Of a stretch of 64,000 nt of DNA, positions 6,821 through 14,746 are shown piece after piece. Within the stretch, counting starts at the first letter, position 1. The number at the start of each line of letters is the position of its first letter. The notes beneath the pieces were generated by a model. The model made no database searches. It was not told the origin of the DNA and worked only from the letters and a program-made list of their open reading frames with translations. This DNA is from Xenorhabdus poinarii G6 (lineage in GTDB: Bacteria > Pseudomonadota > Gammaproteobacteria > Enterobacterales > Enterobacteriaceae), in contig NZ_FO704551.1 in the NCBI RefSeq assembly GCF_000968175.1, positions 1,116,001 through 1,180,000 on the forward strand, written 5' to 3'. The translations under genes were made by a program, and so were the position numbers.

Positions 6821-7215
6821 GTGTTCCCCATATGCATGGGGATAAACCGGCTATTCAGCAAATGAAAACTATTCAAAAAAAGTGTTCCCCATATGCATGG
6901 GGATAAACCGTGGACGGTTACCCGTCGGGCGGTGCCGGTGCGGTGTTCCCCATATGCATGGGGATAAACCGCCAGCACGGGTGATAGTTGCAGTGGTCAC
7001 AACGTGTTCCCCATATGCATGGGGATAAACCGTTAGAAGATGCGATTAATGCAATAAAAGAGGAGTGTTCCCCATATGCATGGGGATAAACCGGACGCTC
7101 ATGAGCTGAGTAGTCCGGCAGCTAAGTGTTCCCCATATGCATGGGGATAAACCGTACAAATGCATAGCGCGTTTTCGTGGGTCAACGTGTTCCCCATATG
7201 CATGGGGATAAACCG
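6821..7215 (+). CRISPR. Type I-E-like CRISPR array, 7 repeats and 6 spacers
   Basis: Seven identical 29-nt repeats begin at 6821, 6882, 6943, 7004, 7065, 7126 and 7187. Each starts GTGTTCCCC and ends GGGGATAAACCG, with the palindromic core CCCCATATGCATGGGG. All six spacers are exactly 32 nt, the type I-E rule. Repeat orientation and the A/T-rich stretch just upstream (6771-6820) suggest the leader is on the left and transcription runs rightward. No cas gene is in the window, so the array depends on Cas proteins encoded elsewhere or is inactive. Spacer origins cannot be judged by eye. Confidence 0.97.
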
Positions 7216-7270
7216 TTACCATAAAACCATATGAAGTATTGTCTATCCCTACTTTGTGGGGATAGACACC
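7216..7270 (+). repeat. Degenerate end of the CRISPR array with hairpin
   Basis: After the last perfect repeat come 25 unrelated bases and then 7241-7270, which begins GTCTATCCC and contains GGGGATAGAC. It resembles a decayed repeat (shared GT-T--CCC and GGGGATA) but pairs with itself by a 9-bp stem (GTCTATCCC with GGGATAGAC). It may be a worn terminal repeat or a separate RNA 3' hairpin. Confidence 0.5.
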
Positions 7271-7338
7271 TCACATCTTGAAGTTGGGTTAGTATAGAGA
7301 TAAAAATGAATATTAAAAAATAATAAACTATTGAGATC

Positions 7339-7368
7339 AAAAAAGGTTATCAAATGATAACTTTTTTT
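7339..7368 (+). terminator. Rho-independent terminator after the CRISPR array
   Basis: A 13-bp stem with one G-U pair (7339-7351 with 7356-7368) closes an AAAT loop and ends in seven T. It probably ends the pre-crRNA and insulates the next gene. Confidence 0.75.
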
Positions 7369-7546
7369 GATTAGTTTTTTATTTTTTTATGATTATGCTG
7401 GGGATCTGAGTTGAGATGATTATATGGTAGTCAATGTTAAAATTGTTTTTTATATTAAGTTTATTTTCAAAACTATTTCTGGAGTGAATTTTTTTTAATG
7501 TAATGTGATTAATTATAATATATTAATAATAATACGAGGTGATAAA

Positions 7547-9535
7547 ATGGCAGCTATTACTAGCACGAAAATTTCACCACTGGCTAATAAATTAGAGGTG
7601 GGTCACAAAGTGACATTTTCAGTAAAATTAACATCGAATAAACCTATTGATAATAACAAGTATATAATAGTAGAAAATGGCTACATTCAAAATATAAAAT
7701 TTGATAACTTAAAAGTCCCACTTGTCTATAAAAATGAAAGTGGGATGTTTACCGCAACTGCCGAATTTGGTTTTACGGTGCTTGCTAAAATAGGAGGAGT
7801 AGGGTCGAATGTGAATAATGATGATTCTATTTCATTTGCAATCAATACTGATGCGAAATCGGATGCGACTGTATTTCCAAACATGCCACATACGTACAAT
7901 AGTAAAATTAAAGTTAATCCGGTAAGTAGCAATAAAATAGATATCACAATTAATAAAAATGCTGATTTAGTTATAGGTCAGAAAGTGAGTTTTTTTGTAG
8001 AATTAAACTCAGATAATCCTATTGTGCCAGCGGGTAATATAACCATAAAAAATATCAGTTCCAATATAAAGTTTGATCAAGATACGACTAAGCCTATTCC
8101 GCTTTATAGCCAAGTTGGTAATAAAGCATCTGCGCAGTTAAGTTTTACCGTACTTGATGGTGTGTTAGGTGGAACACCTGCACAAGATGGTGATGCTATT
8201 ACATTTGTAATCCATACTGATGCGTCGACGTCTGAAGGTCATTTTGGTTCTGTTCTATTCAATGGTACAGCAAACGAAATTGATGTGGATTCACTGGCAC
8301 TTTTTGTTGAGAATCCGTTTCTGCAAGTATTATCAGAAAGTGGTCAACAACATCCTACGGCAATATATACGTATTTAAAGAATAGAAATACACAGAAACC
8401 ATTGGTGGGGACACCTATATTTATTACATCACAAAAGCGTAATCAAATAGAAGAATTTAAATTTAAGGATGGCGATAGGAACAATCCTATAATGCTTGAA
8501 GAAGAAGGTAATACTAAAGGATTGATTATCGCTTCTAAAGAAGATGGTTTAGTAAGGTTCTATCTCTATCCTCAAACAGCACGGATAAGTATTGTTAATT
8601 TATGGAGCTATATTATAAGTTATACAGCAGATATTAAACGTGAAGCTAAGCAAGTAATCTATGCAGTGAACTATATTAAGCCTACTTTTTTTAATTCTAT
8701 AGGTATGCCTGATATTTCTGGCTATAGTACTGCTGGTATACGTGCAGATTCGATATTACCATATTTTATGGTATCCATTAGTGGCGATCCTAGAATATCA
8801 AAAGGTGATATGGTTTTATTTTTTGTTAATAAATTAAACTCTACGAAACCCCCTAAATTTACTGGCTATACGGAGTTGATTGGTGATCTTCAAACACAGT
8901 TAGATCGGTATAGTATGAAACTTCCTTATACGATTTTTGAACAGTTAGTACCGTCGGAATTTTCTTATGCTGTTGTTAAGCCGGATGAATTAGCTTTATA
9001 CTCTGAAACATTGCCAGTAACTTATTTAGGGGGAGCACCATATGTACCTGAACAAGAAGCTAAGAGAAGCTATGAGCTTTGCATAGTTCACCCCAGTACT
9101 GGTGTTGATCCTGATGTTTTTATACCAGCTGATAATAACATTGTTTATGACAATATTAAGAAGTATCCTAATAATAAGTATGATGGATTATTTATTGAAA
9201 TAGTACGTTTAAAATCTAACAATACTGATTCAAAATTAAATCCAGTTCCATTAAATATAAAAGATATTACTCTGAATATGTATATTAACTCAGATAATAA
9301 AAGTTTCACTAAATCTTATAATCAACAGATTGATTTGGCAGACATAAGTGGCCCTGGTAATAAAGACTCTATTTTCTTTCATATTCCATATGATGATATT
9401 GTTGGTGTTAAGTGGAGAGGGAATATTAGTTTTGATTATCAATTCTTTAAAGATGAGGTTATTCAATATAGTGTTGTTTGGAATGGATATATTGATACTG
9501 AATCACTTGGATCAAGTGGACGTGGCTTGTCGTAA
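7547..9535 (+). CDS. Large beta-rich protein with two tandem Ig-like repeats (cassette gene 1)
   Basis: I do not recognise the family of this 662-residue protein. ATG at 7547 follows CGAGGTGATAAA. An in-frame GTG 42 bases upstream lacks a ribosome site. Residues about 10-125 and 130-250 are two copies of one module, sharing L-x-x-G-x-K-V-x-F-x-V-x-L-x-S, a central A-x-x-x-F-x-V-L and a D-x-I-x-F-x-I-x-T-D-A end, which suggests Ig-like beta-sandwiches. Residues about 255-662 match the following gene, with shared landmarks PIFI, LPYxI, KYDGLFIEI, LNMYINS, FxIPY and a final WNGYI. There is no signal peptide, membrane segment or catalytic motif. Base composition is far more AT-rich than the backbone, which points to horizontal gain. 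A role as adhesin, structural or secreted effector-like protein is possible but untested. Confidence 0.75.
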   Translation: MAAITSTKISPLANKLEVGHKVTFSVKLTSNKPIDNNKYIIVENGYIQNIKFDNLKVPLVYKNESGMFTATAEFGFTVLAKIGGVGSNVNNDDSISFAINTDAKSDATVFPNMPHTYNSKIKVNPVSSNKIDITINKNADLVIGQKVSFFVELNSDNPIVPAGNITIKNISSNIKFDQDTTKPIPLYSQVGNKASAQLSFTVLDGVLGGTPAQDGDAITFVIHTDASTSEGHFGSVLFNGTANEIDVDSLALFVENPFLQVLSESGQQHPTAIYTYLKNRNTQKPLVGTPIFITSQKRNQIEEFKFKDGDRNNPIMLEEEGNTKGLIIASKEDGLVRFYLYPQTARISIVNLWSYIISYTADIKREAKQVIYAVNYIKPTFFNSIGMPDISGYSTAGIRADSILPYFMVSISGDPRISKGDMVLFFVNKLNSTKPPKFTGYTELIGDLQTQLDRYSMKLPYTIFEQLVPSEFSYAVVKPDELALYSETLPVTYLGGAPYVPEQEAKRSYELCIVHPSTGVDPDVFIPADNNIVYDNIKKYPNNKYDGLFIEIVRLKSNNTDSKLNPVPLNIKDITLNMYINSDNKSFTKSYNQQIDLADISGPGNKDSIFFHIPYDDIVGVKWRGNISFDYQFFKDEVIQYSVVWNGYIDTESLGSSGRGLS

Positions 9536-9621
9536 TAGAAAGAGAAAGCATGTGTGATTTAATTTCATAAGGTGGTAAAAATAGTATTTTTTTATAAATA
9601 ATAACTAAAAAAATAAAGTCA

Positions 9622-9648
9622 CTTACTCCTCATATCTCGAGGAGTAAG
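9622..9648. terminator. 10-bp perfect hairpin between cassette genes 1 and 2
   Basis: CTTACTCCTC (9622-9631) pairs fully with GAGGAGTAAG (9639-9648). There is no T-run right after it on the plus strand. On the minus strand CTTTATTTTTTT follows. It may act as an attenuator or a 3' end stabiliser of the gene 1 mRNA. Confidence 0.45.
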
Positions 9649-9780
9649 GGCGAATTTGGGTGTTAATTATATTTTTATTTTATATGTAATATCAAATGTT
9701 AAATTAACTTACTGTGGTAAGAAGATTTTTTCGATAGTATCGATAATTAAAAATATGAAGTTTATAAGAGGAATAAACAT

Positions 9781-11283
9781 ATGTCTAATATTATGACCTT
9801 TTCACTGCCAGAAACGGGAAATTTAATCATAGGGCAAGCTTTTTTATTTACAGTGACATTATCCTCTGATGAGGTTATAGATAGCAGTTCAACAATTTCA
9901 TTTTTTAATAATAAAAACATTTCTATACCAATTGGAGATATTTCCGTAAATTTGGAAAGTGACAATAAAAAAGCCACGGCAACAGTAACACTTATCGTAA
10001 ATAATTCGATAGCAGAAAATGAGGAGATTCATTTTAGTGTAAAAACATCATTGAGTGGTATTCAGCAAAAAAAATTGCAATATCTTGCAAAAGAAATTTA
10101 TCCTGAATCATTGAGGTTGATCGTTGATAATGCTTTTTTATCAGTACCAATACCATATGATCATTCTCAAATAGGTACTGTATCAACTAAAGTACATACC
10201 GTTATCAAAGATAAAGATGGTAATCCATTATCAGGAATTCCGATCTTTATAAAGAGTAGAGAATTTAATCAGCTAAAAGAAGTATACATTTATACTAATG
10301 ATGTAAGAAATAAAATAAATATTCAGAATCTTTCTCTTTATTCTGGTTTTTCTATAAATTCAGGTGATAAAGGCCAGGTGGAATTTTATATTTCTCCGAT
10401 TAAATCATTGTCATTGGTTATCGACTTGTCTTCAATTATAAGGATTCCATCCGATTTTGCTGTTTCTCATAGTACTGTTTTCATTATTTTTGATGATAAT
10501 AAATATAATCGACAAGGACCTGAAGTAGTTACTGCTATTGATGGTGATTTAACATCGAAAGGAGAAAGTAAATTTTGGCTAGATACAGCACCATGTACTG
10601 CTTATGATGTTGATGATTTTTTATTATTCAATGTTAATGGTGAATACAAGTATTACGTCAGAGGATTTGATGTAATTGAAGACAATCAATGCTTAATTAA
10701 ATTACCTTATTTTATTCTTGAGAAAAATAAATTATCAAATCTTTCTTATATTGTAATGAAAGGAAGTGGAAATGTTATAGTTAAATCCTATCCTGTGGAT
10801 GTTACTTACAGAGGAAGGACAAATAAACCATGGACAGATGTTGATAGAATATATGAACCCTGTAAGGTTTATACTAGCTTTAATGATGTTATAGAGCAGG
10901 ATGGTGGTATAAACAATCAAAAAATATCTAACCATGCAAAAAACCCAGATGATGCTGGCTTGTTTGTTACAATAACAGGAACTAATGATAATAGTGATAA
11001 TACTAAAGTAAAACTCGGATCAAAAGTTACTTTAAATTTATATATTAATTCTAGAAACAACACAGTCACACAACCTTTTAATGGTATAATGCCATATCAT
11101 CCAGATAATAAAGATGGAAAAACAGCGGTATTGAAATTTAATATACCTTATAAATTATTAAATGGTCATTTTGCATTTCCTTTCCATGACGGGATGATAT
11201 ATTTTGATTATCAGGTTGGTGATGATAATGATAGGTGGGTAACGTATGGTGGTATTTGGTCTGGTCATATCGTTACAGATTAG
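9781..11283 (+). CDS. Paralogue of cassette gene 1 with a single Ig-like repeat (cassette gene 2)
   Basis: A 500-residue protein of unrecognised family, ATG at 9781 after AAGAGGAATAAAC. Residues about 8-105 form one copy of the Ig-like module seen twice in gene 1 (GQAFLFTVTLSSDEVI, ATATVTLIV, EEIHFSVKT). The rest aligns with gene 1: IPIFIKSREFNQLKE, IKLPYFILEKNKLSNLSYIV, YEPCKVY, DDAGLFVTI, VTLNLYINSRNNTVTQ, LKFNIPY, MIYFDYQ, GGIWSGHI. The two genes therefore arose by duplication, followed by gain or loss of one N-terminal repeat. No signal peptide or membrane segment is seen. The same strong AT bias as its neighbours is present. Function unknown. Confidence 0.75.
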   Translation: MSNIMTFSLPETGNLIIGQAFLFTVTLSSDEVIDSSSTISFFNNKNISIPIGDISVNLESDNKKATATVTLIVNNSIAENEEIHFSVKTSLSGIQQKKLQYLAKEIYPESLRLIVDNAFLSVPIPYDHSQIGTVSTKVHTVIKDKDGNPLSGIPIFIKSREFNQLKEVYIYTNDVRNKINIQNLSLYSGFSINSGDKGQVEFYISPIKSLSLVIDLSSIIRIPSDFAVSHSTVFIIFDDNKYNRQGPEVVTAIDGDLTSKGESKFWLDTAPCTAYDVDDFLLFNVNGEYKYYVRGFDVIEDNQCLIKLPYFILEKNKLSNLSYIVMKGSGNVIVKSYPVDVTYRGRTNKPWTDVDRIYEPCKVYTSFNDVIEQDGGINNQKISNHAKNPDDAGLFVTITGTNDNSDNTKVKLGSKVTLNLYINSRNNTVTQPFNGIMPYHPDNKDGKTAVLKFNIPYKLLNGHFAFPFHDGMIYFDYQVGDDNDRWVTYGGIWSGHIVTD

Positions 11284-11349
11284 AATCAATTCACTAGGCA
11301 TGTATTTATTATTTAAATAACATTAAAAGTATGTTTGAAATGGTGATGT

Positions 11350-12726
11350 ATGAATATAAAAAATAATATCGTTTTATCTAAGCCTGAATTCCCTCAAGGT
11401 GGTTCGAATAACGTCATTAATATCCTTGAGGTTAAAGCAATGAAAATTAAATATTTAGTAATGAAAGTGAATAAATATGATGGAGTTGAGCTATTAGATA
11501 GTATAGATGGTGAGCTTTATCTAAAGAATAATTCAAAGATTAAAATAAAAAGCATTACTTATTGTATAACGCCAGATGTTTTGGATAACGACTATGATTA
11601 TTATTCTGTGATTTTTAATGTAAGTGATTTTCATACATATGGATTATACGAAGCAGTATATACAGTGACAAGTTCAAATAATAACAAACATACTTCACCA
11701 ATTTCAGATGTTAATATTATAGAGGATGCTTCTATGAATACTTCAGATAATGAAATAACGTTTACTGATATTAAAAATCGCAAATTATATTTAAGTAGTA
11801 TTTATCGTGAAAGAGGAATACGGGTTCGTGTAAACTTTAAAGGTTTTACGGCTGGGAATACTATCACTATTACATTAAAGATTTTAGATGAAGAAAATAG
11901 CCCAATAAATACTTTGAAATCTGATAAAATATTGCTCCAGGATCAGGTGAATCAAGGCTATGCTGATTATACAATAAGCACAGATGGGAGTGGGATGAAT
12001 TTTGTAGAGGCTAAATCTATTTTGGCTAGTTTTTATAGTGCTGATGTTAATATAACATCCTCTTTATCTCAAATTTCTATTTATAACGATTTAGATAATG
12101 TTAATGTCAAAGTACAATTGACTCAAAATATTGGTACTAGTAGTGATTCTCCTGATATAAAACCGTTTTTAACAGCTGTAGTGTATGCAGGATTAAATAG
12201 CAATACAATTATTGCCCAAGTATCCAATGCTTACTTTAGTGATGGTTCTAATAGAACCTCATTGGGGAAAATAAATAACAATGGAGTGGGGTATCTGAAT
12301 ATTTATAGTAAAGATTTTGCTAAAAATAGTGTTCTAACTCTTAACTATCTAGATCCTGTTAATGCTTATAAAATTGATTTGAATTTTTCTGGCTGGTTAT
12401 TATCCTCAAATGAAGAGATTAAATATACTTATAGCTCTTATGGTGTTGCAGATGGAACGTGCCAATGTTTCCTTTTTATTGAACCGCTAATAAATGGAAT
12501 TGAGGCCATTAATGTGAAATTTGATGCACCAGATATAATGATTGATGATGTCGTTAAGAATTTTATATCAATAAATAATCCTGTTGCTAATAAATCTTTA
12601 AGTTATAAATTAACTTCAAATAAAGCATTTAGGTCTAATTTTTCTATTAATGCCAGTGGTAATGGTATTTCGATGGAACAAATTAATAATACTATCGTTT
12701 TTGTCGATCCGCTAACATTTGAGTAA
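11350..12726 (+). CDS. Ig-like multi-domain protein of unknown function (cassette gene 3)
   Basis: A 458-residue protein I cannot assign to a named family. It reads as repeated beta-sandwich units. Around residues 125-245 the pattern is RVNFKGFTAGNTITITLKI, then QVNQGYADYTIS and NFVEAKSILASFYSAD, close to Ig-like domains in bacterial surface proteins (hydrophobic-G-x-x-x-G-D-T-I-T-L). Similar spacing recurs at about 285-395 (YLDPVNAYKIDLNFSGW, YSSYGVADGTCQCF). There is no signal peptide and only two cysteines, both in that last stretch. It lies 67 bases after gene 2 and 6 bases before gene 4, so it is probably co-transcribed with gene 4. AT-rich. Confidence 0.65.
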   Translation: MNIKNNIVLSKPEFPQGGSNNVINILEVKAMKIKYLVMKVNKYDGVELLDSIDGELYLKNNSKIKIKSITYCITPDVLDNDYDYYSVIFNVSDFHTYGLYEAVYTVTSSNNNKHTSPISDVNIIEDASMNTSDNEITFTDIKNRKLYLSSIYRERGIRVRVNFKGFTAGNTITITLKILDEENSPINTLKSDKILLQDQVNQGYADYTISTDGSGMNFVEAKSILASFYSADVNITSSLSQISIYNDLDNVNVKVQLTQNIGTSSDSPDIKPFLTAVVYAGLNSNTIIAQVSNAYFSDGSNRTSLGKINNNGVGYLNIYSKDFAKNSVLTLNYLDPVNAYKIDLNFSGWLLSSNEEIKYTYSSYGVADGTCQCFLFIEPLINGIEAINVKFDAPDIMIDDVVKNFISINNPVANKSLSYKLTSNKAFRSNFSINASGNGISMEQINNTIVFVDPLTFE

Positions 12727-12732
12727 AATAAT

Positions 12733-14304
12733 ATGGCTATTTCAATAAAATTGACTCCATCATATGAAGTATTTCAAGATAGATCGGCGGTTAATATTCA
12801 TATATTAGCTTATAAATATTTGGAGTCATTACCTGGATTAGAGGTTGTTTTTGAATGTTCAGCCGGTAGCTTTGTTGTTAATGGTGAAGATACAGGTAAA
12901 AAAAGACTTTCTGGCAAGACTGACGGCACTGGAGAAACTTCTGTCTTGATTGTTGCTCCAATTACAGGTGGAAATGGTCAGATGACTGTTTCCCTTAGAG
13001 AGAATAATAAGCAGATTGGCATCTTACCTTACCATCTAATAACAGCAGACTATCAGCTTAACTTTAATGTTACTGGTGACTATGCAATGGCAGATGGTAA
13101 GCACAGTAATAAAGTTAATGCGATTTTGACAGGAATGGGAACCGGGCTTGATCTCAAAAACCGCCAGTTGGATTTAACTGTGACAGGCTCTGCTTCTTTT
13201 GAGCAAAATAAGGTAATCCAGACCACTTCTATCAATACTGATCCGTTAGGTAATGTGAGTTTTGAACTTTATGACGCAAATAATAGTGGTGAGACTGTCA
13301 CCCTAGCAGGCCAATTGAGTGGTAATAAAATATCTCATAATACGGAACAAATTCATTTCCAGCCTAACCTGGATTGTGATGCCCATCCCCCTAGTGACGA
13401 AATCTATATTAGAACAATTTTTACTTATTCTATTAATAATAATCAATACCTTTTACGCCAGCGCCAATGCGATCATTTGGTCACTGTATATAAATTGCTT
13501 GCTGGCGGGAAACAGGGAGAGCAAACTTCGATCGGGCAAAAGTGGGTGAATTATTATGATTTAATGTTCCCATTTGTTATTGAGAATGAGCAATATGTTT
13601 TTGGTTTAGCCAAGGACTTTATTAATGCACCACAAAATACAGATAAATCATTTTGGATGATTGCAAAGTTGGATGAAAACGGACAGAAAGAAATAATAGA
13701 TAGTGGATATTTTGATGTTAGTTATGATGTTGGGTTTGCATATAATATTGGAGGTAGGCAGTTTATCTTACTTCATGGCAAAGGGAATGGATGGCCTGTT
13801 ATATGTTACGAAATTCTTACGAGAGGAAAAATGAATCGTAAACCGATATATCAACAAAACTGGGATAATTTTTACGGAGCTATATTCTTTTTTTCGATGG
13901 AAGGTAAGCAATATATATATCGTCACACAGAGGCTACTAAAAATATTTATACATTTGAGTTTAACAAAGATGGAACCATAGGGAATATTGCATATTCTGA
14001 TACATGGGCATATTATTACTACCCTCAGTTCTCATATTTTATTAAAGGAAAGTATTATTACACTGGTCAGAGATTCTATGATAATTATTGGTTTATTTCT
14101 TACATATATAGTAAGGGTGTTCCTGAACATGTTAACGAACACACAGCTCCATGGGATACGAGTTATCAATATTTAATTCCATTTTCCATTGGTGAAAGTC
14201 AATATTTTTTGAGGCAAAACCAAAGTAAAGATCATTGGTATATTACAGAGACTCTTGCTGATACTAAAATGGGAGAGGATAGGGATTCTAGTACTAATCA
14301 CTAA
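12733..14304 (+). CDS. Ig-like N-terminus plus six propeller-like repeats (cassette gene 4)
   Basis: A 523-residue protein, ATG six bases after the gene 3 stop. Residues 1-110 and 110-215 resemble invasin-type (Big_1-like) Ig domains: VFECSAGSF, KTDGTGETSVLI, then SINTDPLGNVSFELYD. From about residue 225 to the end, six units of roughly 45-58 residues recur, each opening with an aromatic-rich strand such as FxYSINNNQYLLR, PFVIENEQYVFG, AYNIGGRQFILL, FFSMEGKQYIYR, SYFIKGKYYYTG and PFSIGESQYFLR, and most closing with W-x-x-x-Y/F. This suggests a six-bladed beta-propeller or a solenoid binding surface. No secretion signal is visible. A ligand-binding (for example glycan or host-surface) role is an inference from architecture only. 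Confidence 0.7.
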   Translation: MAISIKLTPSYEVFQDRSAVNIHILAYKYLESLPGLEVVFECSAGSFVVNGEDTGKKRLSGKTDGTGETSVLIVAPITGGNGQMTVSLRENNKQIGILPYHLITADYQLNFNVTGDYAMADGKHSNKVNAILTGMGTGLDLKNRQLDLTVTGSASFEQNKVIQTTSINTDPLGNVSFELYDANNSGETVTLAGQLSGNKISHNTEQIHFQPNLDCDAHPPSDEIYIRTIFTYSINNNQYLLRQRQCDHLVTVYKLLAGGKQGEQTSIGQKWVNYYDLMFPFVIENEQYVFGLAKDFINAPQNTDKSFWMIAKLDENGQKEIIDSGYFDVSYDVGFAYNIGGRQFILLHGKGNGWPVICYEILTRGKMNRKPIYQQNWDNFYGAIFFFSMEGKQYIYRHTEATKNIYTFEFNKDGTIGNIAYSDTWAYYYYPQFSYFIKGKYYYTGQRFYDNYWFISYIYSKGVPEHVNEHTAPWDTSYQYLIPFSIGESQYFLRQNQSKDHWYITETLADTKMGEDRDSSTNH

Positions 14305-14671: not shown

Positions 14672-14746
14672 TGGCGCCCCCTGCAGGAATCGAACCTACA
14701 ATTAGCCCTTAGGAGGGGCTCGTTATATCCATTTAACTAAGAGGGC
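14672..14746 (-). tRNA. argW: tRNA-Arg (anticodon CCT), argW type
   Basis: A 75-nt cloverleaf GCCCTCTTAGTTAAATGGAT... with anticodon loop CTCCTAA and encoded CCA, almost identical to E. coli argW. In E. coli and relatives the argW 3' end is a prophage and island attachment site. Here its 3' end faces the foreign cassette. No second copy of the tRNA 3' end was found by eye at the other side. Confidence 0.96.

What the first reader, a model, noticed from the sequence alone, without database searches (positions are those of the whole stretch)
7547..14304. AT-rich four-gene cassette of large Ig-like proteins with no named family
Four genes in a row (662, 500, 458 and 523 residues) are beta-rich, lack signal peptides, membrane helices and catalytic motifs, and are much more AT-rich than the flanking backbone. 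Two are paralogues; the last two are six bases apart. The cassette lies between a CRISPR array with IS scars and tRNA-Arg. I could not recognise a known system. A multi-protein surface, secreted (for example by a contractile or type VI route) or host-interaction complex is possible.
Basis: partly seen in the sequence, partly recalled or inferred. Interest (0 to 1): 0.8.

Follow-up and report, generated by a model that had tools for sequence, protein, structure and literature searches.

The report
Adhesin-linked Ig/propeller cassette of Xenorhabdus
Four neighbouring genes in an insect-killing symbiont encode a Xenorhabdus set of Ig-like and propeller-shaped proteins that in relatives often sits behind an intimin-type surface adhesin gene and here lacks that partner; the job is probably host recognition, but it is untested.

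Summary
The four ORFs, AT-richness and flanks are as described. The genome has the exact chromosome length published for Xenorhabdus poinarii G6. No protein passes a curated Pfam or NCBIfam cut-off. Models: gene 2 is a chain of Ig-like domains (one closest to intimin's); gene 4 is two Ig-like domains plus a six-bladed beta-propeller; gene 1 is gene 2 with one more domain. The gene 1/2 family matches in 30 of 30 Xenorhabdus genomes and in no other sampled genus. Five of eight full-length cassettes in the genus have an inverse autotransporter (IAT, intimin type) beside gene 1. In the window it is missing: homology to X. bovienii begins at the last CRISPR repeat, about 23 bp after the X. bovienii IAT stop. 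The cassette spread recently (dS 0.09-0.16, against 1.04-1.55 for eight backbone genes). A palindrome, TTATCANNTGATAA, precedes many of the family's units (6 of 8 exact sites in the genome). Best reading: a mobile, IAT-linked host-recognition cassette without signal peptides, exported by an unknown route. The propeller module also occurs alone, fused to gene 3's first domain, and beside a CdtB-like nuclease. Linkage and transfer are well supported; function and LysR control are inferred.

The parts
6821..7215 (.). CRISPR array, 7 repeats of 29 nt at 61-nt spacing; homology to the X. bovienii SS-2004 cassette begins at its last base
   Evidence: repeat register; alignment starts at 7215; junction alignment
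7335..7372 (+). Conserved upstream element: palindrome core TTATCANNTGATAA at 7347-7360 with A-run and T-run arms; terminator-like, or an operator of LysR-box shape
7547..9535 (+). Gene 1 (G1), 662 aa: extra N-terminal Ig-like domain plus the gene-2 architecture
   Evidence: two d1 matches, then d2-d4; G1 clade of 14 rows, 100/100
9622..9648 (.). Hairpin between gene 1 and gene 2 (11 pairs; terminator-like on the minus strand)
9781..11283 (+). Gene 2 (G2), 500 aa: four beta-sandwich (Ig-like) domains by my reading; residues 105-237 closest to intimin D00-D0
11350..12726 (+). Gene 3 (G3), 458 aa: N-terminal domain shared with two 430-aa propeller fusions in G216 and, weakly, with a 347-aa protein elsewhere in this genome; rest unassigned
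12733..14304 (+). Gene 4 (G4), 523 aa: Ig-like, Big_1-like (below cut-off), then six-bladed beta-propeller (residues 223-523)
14672..14746 (-). tRNA-Arg(CCT) to the right; ARAGORN found no tRNA in the 20 kb around mlaA of X. bovienii SS-2004, where alignment resumes at window 14777

Best explanation
A mobile host-recognition cassette of Xenorhabdus. Shown: four intact genes encode proteins without evident signal peptides; genes 1, 2 and 4 carry Ig-like domains and gene 4 a six-bladed propeller; in most full-length copies from relatives an inverse autotransporter (IAT) gene lies beside gene 1; the cassette was exchanged recently between the X. bovienii and X. poinarii lineages and here lacks the IAT; a shared palindromic element precedes many of the family's units. 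Inferred: the Ig domains act as spacers and the propeller as a binding tip for insect or nematode surfaces; the proteins leave the cell by a signal-free route (lysis-type release, as recalled for other large signal-less Xenorhabdus/Photorhabdus proteins) and work alongside an IAT adhesin, supplied here, if needed, by another of the genome's IATs; a LysR-type regulator may control the family through the palindrome.
For: Eight full-length gene-4 places in 7 of 30 genus genomes. In these eight, G3 lies directly before G4 in 8, a G1-type gene is present in 8 (in L024 only a fragment lies beside G3), G2 in 6, and an IAT beside G1 in 5: L021, L022, L060, L025 (only its passenger part, the contig ends there) and L024 (block inverted relative to G3-G4). 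Wider: 35 of 66 clusters of the gene-1/2 family have a listed IAT barrel within 10 kb, against roughly 4% expected per cluster; by my reading's rows, 26 of the 35 have it upstream on the same strand, 3 inside the cluster, 5 on the opposite strand and 1 downstream. Homology to SS-2004 spans window 7215-14291 at 93.2%; dS of the four genes 0.085-0.159, dN/dS 0.32-0.50, against dS 1.04-1.55 in 8 backbone genes. The propeller module occurs alone on the X. nematophila plasmid (L057), fused to G3's first domain (L056, two copies) and, in another genus, ahead of a CdtB-like nuclease domain in one ORF (L055; PF03372 E 1.1e-12; CDT-B family E 1.7e-53 but 181.5 bits against a cut-off of 189). Palindrome: of 8 exact sites in the genome, 6 lie upstream of family genes and 1 upstream of a LysR gene; that LysR lies within 10 kb of an IAT or family gene in 12 of the 28 genomes that have it.
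Confidence: 0.5

Rival explanations
1. Secreted effector or toxin-targeting complex: the proteins are soluble delivery or immune-modulating factors released from the cell, with the propeller as receptor-binding part, and the IAT is only a fellow island gene.
For: In genome G147 (another genus) one ORF carries propeller repeats ahead of a CdtB-like nuclease domain; no evident signal peptides; insect-pathogen genus.
Against: No enzymatic or pore-forming family was matched by the four proteins in Pfam or NCBIfam at E <= 1 above a cut-off; the G147 locus is another genus and its frames are interrupted.
Confidence: 0.25
2. Orphaned remnant: after loss of the IAT the cassette has no function in this genome and is decaying slowly.
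For: IAT missing at the left edge; dN/dS 0.32-0.50 is not strong constraint; degenerate copies exist elsewhere (rows with stops or fragments).
Against: All four frames are intact and dN is below dS in each; the genome keeps a second copy of G1, G3 and G4.
Confidence: 0.15
3. Silent store of passenger segments that recombine into IAT genes to vary the adhesin.
For: Tandem arrays of diverged paralogues near IATs; gene 4 has a weak Big_1-like domain, a domain also found in IAT passengers.
Against: None of 11 IAT or passenger ORFs matched any of ten G2/G3/G4 domain profiles below E 0.1; the genes are complete and have their own starts.
Confidence: 0.08

Closest known systems
Inverse autotransporters (type Ve; intimin, invasin, InvE/InvD)
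   Different: The cassette proteins have no IAT_beta match and no evident signal peptide; they are separate polypeptides
Six-bladed propellers (alkaline phytase 1qlg, sialidase-fold 3h6j and 8t1y, fucose lectin 1iub)
   Different: 8-12% sequence identity in these four rows; a common fold, no shared function shown
Cytolethal distending toxin subunit B family
   Same: Only as a domain behind propeller repeats in genome G147
   Different: No such domain in the window's cassette
Xenorhabdus 'invasins' of PMC3220699 (passages seen)
   Same: That paper reports invasin genes duplicated and diverged in Xenorhabdus and Photorhabdus
   Different: It describes a DUF-bearing Xenorhabdus set; the passages seen mention no signal-less Ig/propeller cassette

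Membership tests
Inverse autotransporter (type Ve) | IAT_beta outer-membrane barrel (PF11924) | tested here: not met
   No PF11924 match at E <= 1 in the four proteins; neighbours in relatives do match
Inverse autotransporter (type Ve) | N-terminal signal peptide | tested here: not met
   By reading and a crude hydropathy rule; gene 2 is marginal at 2.15, but that stretch is beta strand in the model; no trained predictor was at hand
Inverse autotransporter (type Ve) | Ig-like passenger domains | tested here: met
   Gene 2 model; gene 4 Big_1 E 0.0071, below the curated cut-off
Sialidase or phytase propeller enzymes | Propeller fold | tested here: met
   Gene 4
Sialidase or phytase propeller enzymes | Catalytic residues or a family sequence profile | tested here: inconclusive
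   No such family match and no PDB sequence match to the alignment; catalytic residues not mapped
Lectin (propeller type) | Glycan binding | not testable with these tools
   Fold similarity to 1iub only
LysR-type regulated unit | T-N11-A palindrome upstream | tested here: met
   TTATCANNTGATAA at 7347-7360; that this shape is a LysR box is recalled
LysR-type regulated unit | Binding by a LysR protein | not testable with these tools
   Only genomic linkage, 12 of 28

The most novel reading that the evidence does not exclude
A multi-partner inverse autotransporter system: signal-less Ig and propeller proteins, co-inherited with an intimin-type adhesin and co-regulated through a LysR-bound palindrome, are released and dock on the adhesin's passenger or on host surfaces as exchangeable extracellular tips.
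Probability: 0.15. Interest if true: 0.8.

Novelty: new variant of a known kind. Interest (0 to 1): 0.55.

Why it matters
Type Ve adhesins are usually described as single, self-sufficient proteins (general knowledge). A genus-wide family of separate Ig/propeller proteins that keeps company with them, moves between species and shares an upstream element would point to accessory partners of such adhesins and to a regulon behind host choice in nematode symbionts. It also names candidate genes for species-specific insect or nematode binding, and a mobile propeller module found in several protein contexts.

Tried and rejected
Family libraries: Pfam, NCBIfam and PHROGs gave nothing above a curated cut-off or below E 0.005 for the four proteins, PADLOC nothing at all. 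PDB by sequence: nothing convincing for single sequences of genes 4 and 1; no match at E <= 1 for alignments of genes 4, 2 and 3. Profile comparison between genes 2, 3 and 4: no relation. Phages: no match to gene 4 or to the lone propeller. Plasmids: one X. nematophila plasmid record matched gene 4 and the lone propeller, none gene 2. Silent-passenger idea: tested and disfavoured. Terminator-only reading of the palindrome: it precedes family genes also where no IAT lies upstream, its left arm is not conserved, and no compensatory change was seen. Defence system: no PADLOC match. Att-like direct repeats at the cassette ends: none convincing (a 20-nt pair at 7225 and 14933 was not pursued). Structures of genes 1 and 3 were not predicted; the two jobs went to genes 4 and 2. 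Papers: nine searches listed no paper on this cassette that I could recognise; I saw listings only, except passages of PMC3220699, PMC4079199 and PMC4706420. The supernatant proteome of PMC3220699 is in a supplement that could not be read.

Rows dropped before counts: one search gave 18 rows; I use 8 backbone genes and dropped 5 short ORFs that overlap real genes in other frames and 5 array or RCC1 genes (one array gene, L014 15831-17417, has dS 0.325, so it too may have been exchanged). print only 150 matches each, so the counts rest on truncated lists; one of its 35 'near' clusters is this genome's second cassette, whose IAT is a core-type one 10 kb downstream. The chance figures are rough. 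Searches scored only the best few candidates per genome.

Full report
What is there. The four ORFs stand at the stated places, 31.5% GC against 45.1% for the rest of the window. To the left is a seven-repeat CRISPR array ending at 7215, to the right tRNA-Arg, then mlaA- and fadL-like genes (names by my reading). The genome is a single contig of 3,659,523 bases, exactly the length published for X. poinarii G6 (PMC4079199, passage seen). In the same way G202 (4,225,498) matches X. bovienii SS-2004, G205 contig 2 (4,195,202) X. doucetiae FRM16, and G217 contig 1 (155,327) the X. nematophila plasmid. These identifications rest on lengths alone.

Distribution. Gene 4: 21 protein hits, 20 named Xenorhabdus and one from this genome. 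Among 30 genus genomes 12 have some match and 7 a full-length copy (8 copies). Among 198 family genomes 4 matched: this one, G147 (propeller part, E 1.7e-29) and two with weak matches to the Big_1-like region inside very long ORFs. The gene 1/2 family is in 30 of 30 genus genomes, in 3 of 246 family genomes, all three of this genus (1 of 154 genera), and in 2 of 349 phylum genomes, both of this genus (1 of 184 genera). This genome has 18 matches, some of them fragments: 12 in an array at 170-197 kb, two in the window, two at a second cassette at 3.28 Mb and two singletons. The second cassette has the order 494-aa protein, G1-type, G3, G4.

The partner. In L021, L022, L060 and L025 (there only its passenger part, at the contig end) an IAT gene precedes gene 1 on the same strand; in L024 an IAT-G1-G2 block lies inverted beside G3-G4; L023, L017 and the window lack it. 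L017 has a core-type IAT with InvE_AD and LysM domains, about 6 kb from gene 4, which I do not count as the partner. Over the genus 35 of 66 family clusters have a listed IAT barrel within 10 kb, where about 4% would be expected. The four cassette IATs whose start is in hand have hydrophobic N-termini (L021, L022, L024; SS-2004); L021, L022 and L060 match IAT_beta and Big_1, the last below the cut-off in L060, and L024's barrel is listed.

The missing IAT. Window 7215-14291 aligns to SS-2004 at 93.2%. The left edge corresponds to a point about 23 bases after the SS-2004 IAT stop and coincides with the end of the last CRISPR repeat. At the SS-2004 mlaA locus homology resumes at window 14777, and in SS-2004 the cassette lies some 250 kb from mlaA. 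The four genes have dS 0.085-0.159; eight backbone genes have dS 1.04-1.55. In the family tree the window's genes 1 and 2 pair with those of SS-2004 (100/100 and 100/98). The cassette was therefore exchanged long after the species parted. dN/dS of 0.32-0.50 says the proteins are constrained, though not tightly.

A shared switch. In 20 fetched stretches I found 30 sites with at most one mismatch to TTATCANNTGATAA, in 17 of the 20, against 3.85 in shuffles that keep base composition only. Most lie upstream of family units; a few lie elsewhere (in an IAT, upstream of an IAT, or by unrelated genes), and the two singleton loci L018 and L019 have none. In the whole genome there are 8 exact sites: six upstream of family units, one upstream of a LysR gene, one inside an ORF that reads like a phage tail protein; with one mismatch allowed there are 35 sites against 11 for the reversed pattern. 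The alignment of 22 chosen sites keeps the palindrome and its right flank but not the left arm, and no pair shows compensatory change, so I lean to a DNA operator with terminator-like arms, without proof. The LysR, 75% identical to one beside a family array in G204, is present in 28 of 30 genomes and lies within 10 kb of an IAT or family gene in 12 of the 28, in 11 of them with the IAT upstream on the same strand. In this genome it has no such neighbour; the palindrome before it may be what is left of a lost unit.

How it may work. A signal-free set of extended Ig-like proteins with a propeller tip is most simply a recognition device for host surfaces, made beside an intimin-type adhesin. Support comes from company (IAT), fold, and the reuse of the propeller with other partners, including a CdtB-like nuclease in another genus. 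Export, target, and any contact with the IAT are unproven.

Where it stands. It is not an IAT (barrel and signal tested, not met), nor shown to be a lectin or an enzyme. I recognised no paper describing it in the nine searches listed under Tried and rejected; most subscription papers and all supplements were out of reach.

Noticed in passing
own genome C1:168433-197226 (L014, L015): Array with 12 matches to the gene-1/2 family, an Ig plus RCC1-type propeller protein (606 aa), a 1272-aa inverse autotransporter and two ORFs that read like a split transposase; some copies are broken.
   Followed up: partly
L055 (G147 C1:2611000-2630000), ORFs 9150-9773 and 9644-10861: Propeller repeats like those of gene 4, in one ORF ahead of a CdtB-like nuclease domain, near ORFs that read like Tn7-type transposition genes, in a genome of another genus; reading frames are interrupted.
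   Followed up: partly
L057, G217 contig 1 (155,327 bases) at 98074 and 124513: Two copies of a stand-alone propeller protein on what matches the X. nematophila plasmid by length.
   Followed up: partly
own genome C1:841294-843222 (L020): A pair of genes: a 347-aa protein of Ig-like segments whose first domain resembles gene 3, and a 287-aa protein with a hydrophobic N-terminus like a signal peptide; no Pfam match.
   Followed up: no
own genome, six IAT_beta matches: PMC4079199 (passages) says G6 lacks type 5 secretion systems other than XhlA/B, but counts two-partner systems; six inverse autotransporter barrels are present.
   Followed up: partly
window 7241-7267: Perfect inverted repeat GTCTATCCC...GGGATAGAC just right of the CRISPR array, present with small changes after the SS-2004 IAT stop.
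   Followed up: no
window 6821-7215: CRISPR array abutted directly by the transferred cassette; whether cas genes are near was not examined.
   Followed up: no
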